Below are positions 43,753 to 50,622 of a DNA stretch of 64,000 nt, in pieces (the first letter of the stretch is position 1; every line of letters starts with the position of its first letter). The position numbers and the translations under genes were made by a program. Under the pieces are notes generated by a model that was not told the DNA's origin, did not search any database, and was given only the letters and a program-made list of their open reading frames with translations. This stretch comes from Cantharellus purpuraceus (taxonomy: Eukaryota; Basidiomycota; Agaricomycetes; Cantharellales; Hydnaceae), in NCBI GenBank assembly GCA_025174535.1, contig JALBUN010000015.1, forward strand, positions 680,501 through 744,500, written 5' to 3'.

Positions 43753-45432
43753 CTAGTGAGTCGCAGTCACGGAGAGTGGAAGAAACACGTTCACCTCTTG
43801 ACTCCTAGCACGTGTCGTGATCAATAGCGCGTCTGGTGTATCGACGACCACAAGATCATCCACGCCCAGGCACGCTACCAGGCGTCCCGATGCAGGGACG
43901 ACAATTCCGCCAGCGGATTGGTCAGTGACGACTGTAGAGGAACCATGAGCAGATCCCCCGTGGATATGACAAACACCCGCACCCAGTCCTGAATCCCCGA
44001 GAATACGGGGCTGGTCAACTTCCGCAGGAAGCAGATCAGCGAGGGACGAAAAGTCGCCGACGTCGTCCCAACCTACGTAAGTCAAGTCAACAATATACAC
44101 GTAAAGTCGCTTAGCTAACGCTCACCGAAAGTCGCAGGCACTACAGCTACTTTGCCAGCAAGAGCAGCCGGTTCTGCTACAGCAGTATCAATGGCGATCT
44201 TGGGAAGAGTGGGCCACACTTCATCAAGCACTTTTTCCCGTGACTCATCGTCCCAATGTGCAGCGATGGTCTGCAAGCCTTCTGCAAGTTCCGGCTCATA
44301 TTCCGCCAGAAGATCCATAAGAATACGGGCTTTGACGACAAACATGCCGCCGTTCCAACGGTAATTGCCGGTGCTAAGGTAGGTAGCAGCGGTGCGGGCA
44401 TCCGGTTTCTCTTTGAATTGACTCACAAGGCGAGCATTGGGAGCATCGTCAATGTCTAAATTCTCTCCGAGACGGATGTATCCGAATCCCGTGGCGGGAT
44501 GGGACGGAGCAATGCCGATGGTGACGAGCAGGTCATGGCGGGCAGTAGCCACGGCTTCTGCAACAGCGCTCATGAACGCATCGGTGCCGTTGATCATATG
44601 GTCAGCAGCAAAACTACCAAGAATGGCTTCCGGGTCTCGACCGACGAGGACCGCTGCAGCTAGTCCGATCGCTGCGGCACTCTCTTTAGGGCTGGGCTCT
44701 GCGAGGAGGTTGCCTGGGAGTATGTCTGGGAGCTGACCACAGACAGCTTGGCTGTGCACGCGTCCCGTGACGACCATCATTCGTGCAGGGCTTGCAAGTG
44801 GGAGAAGCCGGTCCCAGGTGGCCTGGATCAGAGAACGGCCCCGGAGGGTGAGGTCGAGGAGAAACTTTGGACAACTCTCGCGTGAGAGTGGCCAGAGGCG
44901 AGTACCAGCACCGCCAGCTGGAACCACAGCCCAAAATCCTTGTAACTCGTTCAACCTGAACGGGTACGCAGAGAGCGCACGGTCGCCCAATGGAGAAGGA
45001 ACGTATATGGCAGAGGTGCCGCTGGGACCGCTGGGGCCCAGGAACGGACTGCGCGCGCGCAATTGCGGGGAAGGAGGTGCTATGACTTTGCCATTTTGCG
45101 TTTGCTACCAGCACACGGTTAGAGCCCACTTGTGCAACACTGAATATACGCACGATGCTGGATTCGCGAATATATCGCTCGAGGTTGGCATTAGCTCGCC
45201 TGAGGTCGCTGCACTCTTGCCTGAGGTCGGCGATGTCCGTGTTCTAACAGGAAGCTCAAAAAACGTCTGAGCTCTCTGTGTAATGATGACTCGCCGACTT
45301 TTGGACGACAGACATGATTTGGGTGAACATGTCCTCGACGGCAAGACCTCCTGACGCATTTTTGCTTCTGTCGGGTGGAGGGACGACAATGGGACGGAAG
45401 GGTCTTGAAGTGGGAAATCTTGGAGAATCCAT
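43753..45432 (-). CDS. mannose-1-phosphate guanylyltransferase, bacterial (actinobacterial) type
   Basis: Makes GDP-mannose from GTP and mannose-1-phosphate. Four exons (45432-45299, 45220-45154, 45104-44126, 44072-43753) sum to exactly 1500 nt, 499 aa. The start ATG is in CACCATGG context. Residues 1-123 are a non-bacterial extension: a proline-rich stretch, a short coiled coil (ECSDLRRANANLERYIRE) and a Ser/Pro linker. From residue 124 the enzyme reads FWAVVPAGGAGTRLWPLSRE, CPKFLLDLT, AEPSPKESAAAIGLAAAVLV, GSFAADHMI, ATGFGYIRLGE, FKEKPDARTA, YRWNGGMFVV, PKIAIDTAVAEP and FGWDDVGDFSSLADLL. These match actinobacterial ManC-type GMPs rather than the eukaryotic Mpg1/GMPPB type. The last intron splits the Gly of FGWDD. 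Another intron (49 nt) has GTGCGT, CTCTAACC and TAG. It shares a 106-bp promoter with MID1. Confidence 0.85.
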
Positions 45433-45538
45433 GGTGAAAGACAGGTTGTGTGTCGCTGTGACAGGGTCACCACTGTGACCTGCTCTAAAAAAGGCTTGAG
45501 TTGCGCTATTGCTAGCAACGACGCCGGCGTCGCTCACT
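45433..45538. promoter_or_regulatory. 106-bp bidirectional promoter, GMP / MID1
   Basis: Only 106 bp separate the two divergent ATG codons. No obvious TATA box. Confidence 0.5.
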
Positions 45539-47183
45539 ATGGTTTGTAGTCTACCACAATCCCTTCTTCTTTTATCTCTTTGTTCTCTACAATATCCTCG
45601 AGCTTACGCCCAAGAAGCCAACATGTCCCTGTCACTCAATACCCTTCTTCCTATGACACTCAACTCCACTACGCCATCTCCAATAGCCTTCTCCCTCCCT
45701 CCCAGCACATCGGATTCACCCCTCAGCATATCCGTTGCACTCTGCAGCAACACACAACCTTTCCCACAGTTCTCTGTGAGGAACAACTCAGATACCAATG
45801 GTGCAGGGGGGGGCGGTGCACAGATCAGTTTGGACGAAGGTATTGGCGTATGGAGCGGTGTCACAAGACCCGGGGACACGCTGGTGGTTTCTCTTGGCAA
45901 TGGAGCGTCTAGTTCTTCAGGAAGCGCATGGTCCTTCGAGCTTGCTGTCTCCAGTGGGGGTGAGTAATTTAGACGCCACTCGTTCTCACACACTCTCTCA
46001 TATATACAATTGCAAACCCTTGTAGCGCCGCTACATCGGACTATATCCACCCCTCCTCTTCTAGGAGACACAACGGCAACACAAGCCTTACTCTTCTCGC
46101 CGCCCTTCGCGTCGCCCACCCACGTCTCTCCTAGCTACCCCAACTACTCTCTCCCTAGCGGGAACGTATCATTTCCAGATGCCTCTCCTCCTTCCTCTTC
46201 CGCACAGCCGAATGCATCCCTCATTCTCACGCCCATATCCCAATTCCAGCAGCAATCCATGAATTTGTCGAAGTCAGCCTGTGCAATCCGGAACGCTGCT
46301 ACGAGTATTTCCGGGTCATGGCTTGGTGCAACTGGAACCGGTGATGTGAACGGTAGCACGAGTCTTGTTTTGAGAGATACAGACGGATGGAGATCGCAGT
46401 GGATCATTGAAGGCTTGACGGCCAGTACAAACTATTCGGCATGGGTTGTACAAGATGGCGGCGCTCTAGCGGGACCAATATACGCATATACCAAGTCATG
46501 TGCGAGCTTTACTCTAAGTTGTGTCATTTCTTCAGCTAATTTGTCCCACAGCATCATTTGCTTGCCCCCTAGTGCATTCCCTTCCATACTGTCCGTTAGC
46601 GTCTTATGCAGTACCCTTCCCGCCGGCGCCTAACGGAGCGACGACGTATACGGCTTCAAATCTTCCATCAAACGTATCCGACCTCCTTATTTCCTCAATA
46701 TCCAATTTCACCATCGCTCTCTTAACCTTCCCTTGCGGCCGCGATTTCTATTCGCCCATCCAAACCTGCGAGTCCTGCGCAAACGCCTATCGTGCATGGG
46801 CATGCGCGGTCTCCCTGCCGCGTTGCGGTGAGATCCCATCAACCCTCGCCTCCTCTCTAGCCTCCCCGCCCACCTCATCAAAGGAATCTAATTCACAATC
46901 CTTACCAACCCCCGCAATTTTATCTCATCCTTCTGCACAGTCTCGTTTGAGCGGGTCGATCAGCACGTACGATGAGCTTCTCCCGTGCATTGAGAAGTGC
47001 AATGCAGTGGACCGTGCTTGCCCTTCCTTCCTTGGTTTCACATGTCCTCATACGACAGTGAATGCCAACGAGAGCTACGGTGTGGGCTTCATTGATGCCT
47101 GGGAAGGTGCTCAAGGCATTCAAGGCCAGGGCGTCCCGGGCGTTGCACAAGACCAATGGGGCGTCGCATGGTGTAATGGATAA
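45539..47183 (+). CDS. MID1: Mid1, stretch-activated calcium channel subunit
   Basis: Accessory subunit of the Cch1-Mid1 plasma-membrane calcium channel. The signal peptide is MVCSLPQSLLLLSLCSLQ with a likely cut near AYAQE. The first exon ends at 45959, the next begins at 46026, and a 52-nt intron (GTGCGA...CTAAT...CCCACAG) precedes the cysteine-rich half. The extracellular part shows LSISVALCSNTQP, GGAQISLDEGIGVWSG, YSAWVVQDG, then SSFACPLVHSLPYCPLASYA VP. The Mid1 signature FTIALLTFPCGRDFYSPIQT CESCANAYRAWACAVSLPRC is followed by CIEKCNAVDRACPSFLGFTCP and ends WGVAWCNG. Several N-glycosylation sites (NST, NNS, NAT) are present. Length and order agree with fungal Mid1. Confidence 0.92.
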
Positions 47184-47783: not shown

Positions 47784-50622
47784 TCACAGCCGGGCATTTG
47801 CATTCGTGTTATTTCTCCTCTCCCATTCTTTCACGAGTCGCTTTTGGATCTCCCGCTTTAATGTCTTGCCGGCCGCGTTACGCTCCGCTGGCGAGATGCG
47901 TGTCAGGGCCAAAAAAAGAGGAGCGTGCACACATGCACCTTACCTATCATCTCCGCCTGTATAACAATCAGAGACGGCACAGCGAATGCGGGGAGACTGC
48001 AAGATGTAAGGCAGACGTCAGATCGCCCTTTCTACTTCTGCTCCCACTCCCTACACAATCTGTCAATATCACTGACCTGGGTTTGACCTTCTCCAAAATC
48101 GCTTCCTCGGTCAATTTGCCCAACCATTCTCTCCGTGGAACCACCAGCGCACCCACGAGCTCGCCTAATCGCTTGTCTGGGATGCCAACAACGGCGCAGT
48201 CCAGCAGTCTAGGATCGGCGAATAATGCGTTCTCCACCATGACAGAATGCTATTTCCGGAAATGTGTGAATAATGAACGAAGAAAACATGCTTTTGGAAA
48301 CGAACAATATTCTCTCCCCCTCTATGTTGGACGAGCAGTGGCGTGAGACAAGTGGTCCTGTTGATTATGATAGAACGTACCGGATAATCATATCTTTCAC
48401 TTAAAACATTGATACCTCAGTTACTGAAGTCGAATGAATGATGTTGGCATGTACCTCTATCCTTAATATATACGAACCCTTCCTCATCGATACTCGCAAG
48501 GTCTCCAGACTTGAACCACCCATCACGGGTAATGACCTCGTCCGTCGCCTTTTGATTGTTGTAGTACCCACGCATGATAATGGGGCCCCGGCTAGATGGT
48601 AAATCAGAATATATGCCAAAGTGCTGGTGAAGGTTGGAACGCACATCCACAACTCCCCAATTTCACCAGGCGGAAGCACTCTATTGCTGTTCGGTTCAAC
48701 AATGAGGAGGTCCACTACGGGGAGAGGTAAACCTCTGAAGACATTGGATGTATATTACACCGTTGTTATGAGTTCGATCCCCATACTGAAAATTTGGTGC
48801 GACTTACGTGCTTCCAGATCTCGCAAGATAGTCTTCGCCTTTCGACCAAAGCAATCATAAGTGTCACAACCAAAGAGGAAACTGCCAACACTCACCCATA
48901 AATGACACTGCAATACAATTCGTTTCTGTTAAACCGTACCCTTGCTGGCTGCATTAGATAGAGGTGAAAGAAATGTCACAGACTAGTACGCCATACAGCA
49001 GGTTGAAGTAAAAATGTACGTACACTATGGCGTTTGGAAATTTCTTTTTGATCTCCAGAGGAAGAGAATCGGCCGCAGGGGCTCCGCCAGTACCAATGCC
49101 TTCGATGAGCGTATTTCCTGCAAGGGGATCAGACATTCCACTAGAGTACACGACATTGGGAATATGACAGATCCTGGAAAAGACATAAAGCTATTTAACA
49201 AAGGCATGTTACTAACCTGTTGCGCCAGTCTCAAAGATGTCATAAACTATGCTTGGGACGCCCACGGTCGCAGTTATTTTTTCCTCTTGAATGAGTTTGG
49301 CGGCTGAATATGGGTAATGCATTGATTTGCCGAAGATCAATAAGATATTTTGTACGCATAGATTTTGAAGGATTGAAGGTGGCACATACCTAACTCCTTT
49401 CCCCACTGTTATGACGATATAATAATTTGAAAATAAATGAACGTTTCTGAAAGTATATGGACTTTCCTTGCGCATTAAAACGACCTTGCTGCCTAGGGTC
49501 GTTGCGAAGAGCTTTAAATTGCCATGGAATAAAAATTGCATCAGTGGTGGAGAACACAGAAACCGTCTGCCTAACCAATTGACCAGTACAGGCAGTGACG
49601 TGAAAAAGTGGAACTGCAACAAGGTTTGCAAGTGCCTTCGTCTCCTGTGAGGGGCCTTGACCTAAAGGTGGGGGCACTGCAAAGTGACTGTTACGAATGT
49701 CCCTCAAGGGAAAGCCGGGGAAAGGATACTCGCAATCACCACCTAATCTGAGCTCCCTCCGACGGGCTGAGAAAATAACATGAAACGTGTTTGCAAGGAA
49801 ACCGCGCTGAGTCGAGAGAACGCCCTTGGGTAACCCTGTCGTTCCCGACGTGAAGAAAATCTAAGCGTTATGGGTAGGTCATGAAATCGAGAGCAATCAC
49901 TTCCTACACTAACCGTAGCATTGTCCTCAGGTAGAATTTCTGGCCCCTTTTGCCATGCTGTTAGGGATCCGGTATATGATGCCATAACATGCGACCATTC
50001 CCTGACACGAGAACCAGCCAGAGGCCTCGAGGAAGAAGGCCGGACAAGGATCACAGGCATGTGGAGCGCAGGTAGGTGAGAACTCAGAAGACTCATACGC
50101 TCCGAGTCTAGAATCATCACTTTCGGGGTTGTGAGATTGACACAATGCATGAATGGCTCAATCGGTAACCATGCATTGAAGGCAGTCGGAACTGCTCCCT
50201 GTTAGAATTCGAGTGTCAATAGTCGCAAATTTCGAGAGGCTGAAGTGAGTACCAGGATCGCCGCACCCCAGAAAGAAATGATCCATTCCGGATAATTGCG
50301 CATAGCAATCCCAACCCTATCACCCTTTCTGATCCCATAGACCTTCATGTGGTGTGTCAAGCACCGTTATCAAAGCTACATAATCATGACTTCCTACCTC
50401 GCGCAACAAACTGGCTAAGCGCTGCACCATGGCGTCCGCTTGGCCGTAAGTTGTCCGTGTGTCCTCAAATACGATATATTCGTCGTTATGTATTTCCTTC
50501 TTTTCGGAGACATTGACTCGCCAATGCACACGAAGAGATGGCCAGAGATTTTTGTAGACCCTGTAAACACGGTTATCAATCACAGCATGTTCCATCTCGT
50601 GGAGTTGGCCAGGTGCGGTCAT
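47784..50622 (-). CDS. AMP-forming acyl-CoA synthetase, copy 1 (PTS1)
   Basis: Adenylating enzyme of the acyl-CoA synthetase/4CL superfamily activating a carboxylic acid with ATP and CoA. The start (50620-50622) gives MTAPGQLHEMEHAVIDNRVY. Blocks in order: FEDTRTTYGQADAMVQRLAS, GDRVGIAMRNYPEWIISFWG, AVPTAFNAWLP, the P-loop FFTSGTTGLPKGVLSTQRGF, ITRDGWFKSGDLASIDEEGF (A8), RLLDCAVVGIPDKRLGE, and the catalytic-lysine motif ERNAAGKTLKREI. The end is NANARL: Ala-Arg-Leu is a permissible peroxisomal PTS1, also kept in copy 2. About ten or more introns. Chain-length preference cannot be read from the sequence. The 5' ~0.9 kb is identical to copy 2. Confidence 0.85.

What the first reader, a model, noticed from the sequence alone, without database searches (positions are those of the whole stretch)
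43753..45432. Actinobacterial-type GDP-mannose pyrophosphorylase with spliceosomal introns in a fungus
The catalytic domain carries blocks typical of actinobacterial ManC-type enzymes (FWAVVPAGGAGTRLWPLSRE, AEPSPKESAAAIGLAAAVLV, GSFAADHMI, FGWDDVGDF) and not the eukaryotic Mpg1 pattern. Yet three introns of 78, 49 and 53 nt interrupt the gene, one inside FGWDD, the exon lengths sum to an exact 499-codon frame, and it shares a 106-bp promoter with the fungal MID1. Contamination is therefore unlikely; transfer from a bacterium followed by intron gain and fusion to a 123-aa fungal extension is the best reading.
Basis: partly seen in the sequence, partly recalled or inferred. Interest (0 to 1): 0.75.

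Follow-up and report, generated by a model that had tools for sequence, protein, structure and literature searches.

The report
Bacterial sugar-nucleotide enzyme in mushroom fungi
A mushroom-type fungus carries, as an ordinary intron-containing gene, an actinobacterial-type enzyme predicted to make GDP-mannose; relatives in many mushroom genera have it too and the usual eukaryotic version was not found here, so an essential step may have been swapped by an ancient gene transfer.

Summary
Real, and broader than reported. The minus-strand gene (45432 to 43685) encodes a 495-aa single-function ManC-type GDP-mannose pyrophosphorylase in a Gomphales-like fungus. Of the 120 best homologues, 81 carry organism names and by my reading all 81 are Agaricomycetes. 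The nearest bacteria are Kineococcus (68-72% identity; every other listed prokaryote at most 64%). Fungi form one clade (100/99) joined to Kineococcus (99/99). Kineococcus manC sits beside sdhC in 11 of 11 testable loci, as in 25 of 71 other loci, so bacterium-to-fungus is the likely direction. Canonical eukaryotic Mpg1 was not found in the 40-Mb assembly, and no named row in two 120-row lists seeded with basidiomycete-type Mpg1 is an Agaricomycete. Best reading: an ancient transfer into the Agaricomycete stem, with loss of native Mpg1. Activity, timing and loss are inferred; the distant-outgroup root is unresolved (AU p 0.52), and the gene's range outside Agaricomycetes is untested.

The parts
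45295..45432 (-). exon 1 (start codon at 45432; codons 1-46)
   Evidence: aligned to homologues
45244..45294 (-). intron 1, 51 nt, GC-AG (GCGAGT...TTAG), phase 0
   Evidence: placed by homologues QKS|N..DIADLR; GT donors at 45309 and 45306 would keep the frame but drop the conserved VQKS
45154..45243 (-). exon 2
45154..45339 (-). conserved N-terminal helix (residues 32-80), likely a coiled coil, interrupted by intron 1; its last codons lie in exon 3
   Evidence: pLDDT block means 72-94; conserved MFxQIM..KS..EIAELR.EC pattern
45105..45153 (-). intron 2, 49 nt (GTGCGT...CTCTAAC...TAG), phase 0
44126..45104 (-). exon 3: linker and most of the nucleotidyltransferase domain
44041..44942 (-). catalytic NTP_transferase domain (about residues 131-413), interrupted by intron 3
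   Evidence: PF00483; fold match to 2cu2 and 2x65
44073..44125 (-). intron 3, 53 nt, phase 1, inside FG|WDD
   Evidence: inserts at the same place in 4 of 120 homologues, and 2 more leave the family sequence right after FG
43983..44072 (-). exon 4
   Evidence: inserts exactly there in 8 of 120 homologues
43795..43931 (-). exon 5: C-terminal beta-helix domain
   Evidence: PF22640
43685..43738 (-). exon 6 with the true C-terminus and stop
45433..45538 (.). 106-bp head-to-head spacer shared with MID1
45539..47183 (+). MID1 stretch-activated Ca2+ channel component (fungal neighbour; exons not refined)
   Evidence: PF12929 in two of three pieces scanned, 1.8e-8 and 1.2e-36

Best explanation
The gene is a bacterial-type (ManC, single-function) mannose-1-phosphate guanylyltransferase. 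An ancestor of the Agaricomycetes took it from an actinobacterium of, or close to, the Kineococcus lineage. It gained spliceosomal introns and an N-terminal helix plus disordered linker before or early in the radiation of the class, and displaced the canonical eukaryotic GMPPB/Mpg1 enzyme, which was then lost. It would work as in bacteria: GTP + mannose-1-phosphate gives GDP-mannose + PPi through the GGxGxR...PK loop, D244, K309, N327 and D406 (roles recalled), feeding mannosyl transfer downstream. Shown by computation: family, fold, intact active site, gene structure, nearest relatives, breadth among listed Agaricomycetes, no detected Mpg1 in this assembly. Inferred: catalytic activity, the time of transfer, loss across the class, and a self-assembly or regulatory role for the helix.
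Against: The AU test does not reject a tree with all 58 actinobacterial rows on one side and fungi plus the four distant outgroup rows on the other (p 0.523, likelihood 1.56 higher than the free search), so outgroup rooting does not prove nesting. No activity has been shown. PMC8092308 says GMPP clades C and D hold all major fungal lineages, Basidiomycota included, and calls a third long-branch GMPP clade 'Dikarya specific'; if that is this gene, it may also occur outside Agaricomycetes, which I could not test.
Confidence: 0.83

Rival explanations
1. The bacterial-type gene is an extra enzyme and the canonical Mpg1 still exists in this fungus, undetected because of assembly gaps or tiny exons.
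Against: Two recalled fungal Mpg1 queries gave no candidate, Dacryopinax Mpg1 only a weak 25% hit, PF00483 only this gene, PF25087 nothing over cut-off. The same tool found Sec53 in five pieces at 51-66% identity. None of 93 named rows or 76 named rows is an Agaricomycete by my reading.
Confidence: 0.1
2. The last transfer went the other way: stem Agaricomycetes held an actinobacterial manC and passed it to the Kineococcus ancestor.
For: Fungi and Kineococcus are both monophyletic sisters, so the tree alone cannot orient the last step.
Against: Kineococcus manC lies divergently beside sdhC in 11 of 11 testable loci, as in 25 of 71 other loci; its matches begin at fungal residue 129, so no part of the fungal extension is matched; GC3 is 0.995 in the one measured. 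Replacement in place would be needed.
Confidence: 0.05
3. The enzyme has changed substrate (another sugar-1-phosphate or nucleotide) and does not make GDP-mannose.
For: No experiment; the score is below the cut-off of TIGR01479 (228.6 against 372.95).
Against: The match covers profile positions 3-339 of 467, the isomerase part being absent, and Kineococcus ManC also falls below the cut-off (263.5 and 260.2). The active-site residues are kept, and a GDP-mannose source is needed for the mannosyltransferases present.
Confidence: 0.06
4. Contamination or a very recent transfer into one genome.
For: Only the high identity to Kineococcus (68-71%).
Against: Present in all 81 organism-named rows of the best 120, spread over many Agaricomycete genera; spliceosomal introns partly shared; fungal neighbour; base composition unlike Kineococcus.
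Confidence: 0.01
5. Ancient eukaryotic inheritance of ManC with loss in nearly all other lineages.
For: The AU test leaves the distant root open.
Against: Fungi plus Kineococcus against all other rows at 99/99 and 100/99; ancestor-deviation rooting puts the root elsewhere.
Confidence: 0.02

Closest known systems
Actinobacterial ManC (single-domain mannose-1-phosphate guanylyltransferase), Kineococcus
   Same: 68-72% identity over about 360 residues, same two domains, same active site
   Different: matches begin only at fungal residue 129 (no shared N-terminal extension); uninterrupted reading frame; bacterial place beside sdhC and sdhA
Thermotoga maritima and Thermus thermophilus GDP-mannose pyrophosphorylase (2x5s/2x65, 2cu2)
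   Different: aligned part covers model residues 131-488 only; bacterial
Eukaryotic GMPPB/Mpg1/Psa1
   Different: different branch of the superfamily; the hexapeptide/GMPPB_C domain of Mpg1 proteins (PF00132, PF25087) is not matched here; not found in this genome
Third 'GMPP' clade (split E) of Schwerdt et al. 2021, PMC8092308
   Same: an uncharacterised long-branch fungal GMPP clade lacking early-branching fungi; may be this gene (my inference, not tested)
   Different: the paper discusses early duplication and loss and calls the clade Dikarya specific; in the parts read it names no bacterial donor for it and reports no Mpg1 loss
TIGR01479 bifunctional GMP/PMI
   Same: matches profile positions 3-339 of 467
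   Different: rest of the profile (isomerase part, recalled) not matched; below cut-off

Membership tests
Bacterial-type ManC GDP-mannose pyrophosphorylase | NTP_transferase domain followed by the ManC_GMP beta-helix domain | tested here: met
   PF00483 125.8 bits and PF22640 37.5 bits, both over cut-off
Bacterial-type ManC GDP-mannose pyrophosphorylase | active-site residues conserved (GGxGxR, PK, D244, K309, N327, D406; roles recalled) | tested here: met
Bacterial-type ManC GDP-mannose pyrophosphorylase | fold of solved bacterial enzymes over both domains | tested here: met
Bacterial-type ManC GDP-mannose pyrophosphorylase | guanylyltransferase activity | not testable with these tools
   needs an assay
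Bifunctional GMP/PMI (TIGR01479) | full-length score over the curated cut-off | tested here: not met
   228.6 against 372.95; profile 3-339 of 467
Eukaryotic GMPPB/Mpg1 | GMPPB_C / hexapeptide C-terminal domain | tested here: not met
   not among the three Pfam families matched
Interdomain transfer replacing a native gene | recipient clade monophyletic and placed with the donor lineage | tested here: met
   100/99 and 99/99, 100/99
Interdomain transfer replacing a native gene | recipient nested within donors when rooted by an outgroup | tested here: inconclusive
   AU p 0.523; ancestor-deviation root favours nesting
Interdomain transfer replacing a native gene | native gene absent | tested here: inconclusive
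   no Mpg1 found in this assembly, none named from Agaricomycetes in two capped lists; absence cannot be proved here

The most novel reading that the evidence does not exclude
In the stem lineage of the mushroom-forming fungi the eukaryotic GDP-mannose pyrophosphorylase system was replaced wholesale by a Kineococcus-type bacterial enzyme, re-tooled with a fungus-invented coiled-coil regulator; every Agaricomycete now makes its GDP-mannose with a bacterial-type enzyme.
Probability: 0.73. Interest if true: 0.72.

Novelty: new variant of a known kind. Interest (0 to 1): 0.64.

Why it matters
GDP-mannose is needed for N- and O-glycosylation and cell-wall mannans, and its synthesis is essential in yeast (recalled). 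A class-wide swap of that enzyme for a bacterial one would be a rare case of transfer into core, not accessory, metabolism. It would give a marker on the Agaricomycete stem, could explain an unexplained long-branch GMPP clade in a published fungal phylogeny, and predicts different control of mannosylation in mushrooms than in yeasts, which can be tested by complementation.

Tried and rejected
The search and the scans used a provisional 504-aa model that still carried the unspliced intron 4 and the wrong tail; later work used the 495-aa model. A first regular expression for inserts at intron 4 was greedy and useless; an alignment-based count replaced it. For intron 3 the reverse holds: the alignment count found 0 rows with the insert exactly at the junction, because the aligner set it a column off, and the regular expression found 4; it also failed on 6 rows, 2 that leave the family sequence after FG and 4 that merely carry substitutions. 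At introns 1 and 5 the count is 0; at intron 2 it cannot be read because the linker varies in length. A low-depth model (mean pLDDT 60.7) was replaced by a deeper one (85.6). L092, the weak PF25087 hit, did not look like Mpg1. Nothing is said about folds for the N-terminal helix, which the structure comparison barely covered.

Literature: ten searches. No listed title, start of abstract or passage that I saw reports a bacterial origin of GDP-mannose pyrophosphorylase in fungi; only the open-licence library was searched and no supplements were read. PMC8092308: outline, passages, sections 6 and 11, and part 1 of 2 of section 12. PMC11708051: passages only ('mannose' does not occur in its main text; it reports that Agaricomycetes have the lowest median number of transferred genes, which neither helps nor hurts). 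PMC6298397: passages only (one Ganoderma gene assigned EC 2.7.7.13; its type is not told). All other papers: search listing only.

Full report
What is there. On the minus strand, 45432 to 43685, lies a six-exon gene. The spliced protein has 495 residues and ends in KRLVAKCREGGWKSTL, like its relatives. The start codon lies 106 bp from that of MID1 on the other strand. The window sits at 680501-744500 of a contig in a 40.15-Mb, 50-contig assembly, so contamination is not a serious option.

Who else has it. The best 120 of 7299 hits were listed. By my count 81 carry an organism name, and by my reading of the genera all 81 are Agaricomycetes, from Auriculariales, Cantharellales and Sebacinales to Agaricales, Boletales, Polyporales and Russulales (orders recalled). 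Ramaria rubella (Gomphales) is closest among the named, 89% over the protein and 92% over the tree columns. What lies below rank 120 among eukaryotes is unknown.

Introns are shared. Several unnamed relatives look like uncorrected translations through introns. At FG|WDD 4 of 120 rows carry 16-22 extra residues, and 2 more leave the family sequence right after FG and end 2 and 22 residues later. At GDSGL|V 8 of 120 rows carry 15-22 extra residues that all begin with G, as a phase-1 GT donor would give. At introns 1 and 5 no row shows an insert. By nearest named row, from a chosen set of 32, the ten rows are closest to Russulales (3), Hymenochaetales (3), Boletales (1, at only 75%), Desarmillaria (1) and Gomphales or their kin (2) (orders recalled). 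So introns 3 and 4 probably predate much of the class. No genomic DNA of another fungus was read.

Where it came from. A scan of bacterial and archaeal genomes returned 43 loci: six Kineococcus at 68-71% identity, the rest at most 60%. That scan used two short motifs and so favours fungus-like rows. Without that bias, 12 of 12 genomes of the Kineococcus family match at 69-72%; 58 of 296 genomes drawn from the class and 330 of 347 drawn from the order match; outside the Kineococcus family no listed match exceeds 64% (weaker matches are not listed, and only the best 5 or 6 candidates per genome were scored). In a tree of 85 rows (the window protein, 22 of the 120 fungal hits, and 62 of 84 locus proteins, duplicates and some near relatives left out) fungi are one clade (100/99), Kineococcus is one clade (100/99), and the two together stand against all others (99/99). 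A second tree of 91 rows, with eight long rows dropped and 14 order-level rows added, gives 100/99 for all three splits.

Rooting, told in full. An AU test of 'all 58 actinobacterial rows on one side, fungi plus the four distant outgroup rows on the other' was not rejected (p 0.523), and that tree scored 1.56 log units better than the free search. The outgroups are too distant to root the tree. Minimal-ancestor-deviation rooting of the 91-row tree, which I coded, gives its best root on a branch to 15 other actinobacterial rows (0.165); the joint stem of fungi and Kineococcus scores 0.195, the fungal stem and the Kineococcus stem 0.324 each (lower is better). Gene order helps more: sdhC lies divergently within 1.5 kb upstream of manC in 11 of 11 Kineococcus loci with at least 700 bp held upstream (one more was not testable) and in 25 of 71 other loci (two not testable; 13 duplicate loci removed first). 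Kineococcus manC thus appears to sit at an inherited bacterial place, so bacterium to fungus is the likely direction. GC3 is 0.995 in Kineococcus vitellinus manC and 0.562 in the fungal exons, as expected after long residence.

What happened to the native enzyme. In this assembly, recalled yeast Psa1 and Cryptococcus-like Mpg1 gave no candidate. Dacryopinax Mpg1 gave one weak 25% hit (E 0.195), which I read as eIF2B epsilon from its reading frames (recalled resemblance). PF00483 found only this gene and PF25087 nothing over its cut-off, though none of that search's 14 control genomes is over the cut-off either. As positive control, yeast Sec53 was found in five pieces at 51-66% identity. Protein searches with the Cryptococcus-like and Dacryopinax queries list 120 rows each; by my count 93 and 76 carry organism names, and by my reading none is an Agaricomycete. 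Between them the lists hold Tremellomycetes, Dacryopinax (in one search only as the query itself), Wallemia, Pucciniomycotina, Mucoromycota and Ascomycota. Since ascomycete and mucoromycete enzymes make the lists, Agaricomycete orthologues of usual conservation should have shown. This is strong but negative evidence. The fungus still needs GDP-mannose: a phosphomannose isomerase match, Sec53 and O-mannosyltransferase pieces at three places are present.

How it most likely works, and what is new. The simplest account is one transfer from a Kineococcus-like actinobacterium into the Agaricomycete stem, intron gain, addition of a helical N-terminus that may drive assembly or control, and loss of Mpg1. 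Transfer from bacteria to fungi is a known kind of event. What seems new is the place in central metabolism, the breadth, and the apparent replacement. Schwerdt et al. 2021 (PMC8092308; passages, sections 6 and 11 and part of 12 read) describe a third, long-branch, uncharacterised GMPP clade whose annotation may need reassessment; this gene is a candidate for it, though 'Dikarya specific' would reach beyond Agaricomycetes. In ten literature searches I saw no report of the bacterial origin.

Noticed in passing
I saw no Ustilaginomycotina name in either best-120 list for canonical Mpg1, although Tremellomycetes and Pucciniomycotina are there; they may simply score lower, or have diverged.
   Followed up: no
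window 45244-45294: A GC-AG intron lies within the conserved N-terminal helix region; its donor GCGAGT fits the usual strong consensus of GC donors (recalled).
   Followed up: partly
L007-L011, L018-L021, L042-L044: manC and sdhC/sdhA are head-to-head in many Actinomycetes (25 of 71 testable loci outside Kineococcus); why a sugar-nucleotide gene stays beside succinate dehydrogenase is unexplained.
   Followed up: partly
window 45433-45538: Only 106 bp separate the start codons of manC and MID1; whether they share control, or are neighbours in other Agaricomycetes, was not tested.
   Followed up: no
window 47968-48249: An AMP-binding enzyme C-terminal domain on the minus strand (PF13193), an ordinary neighbour.
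   Followed up: no
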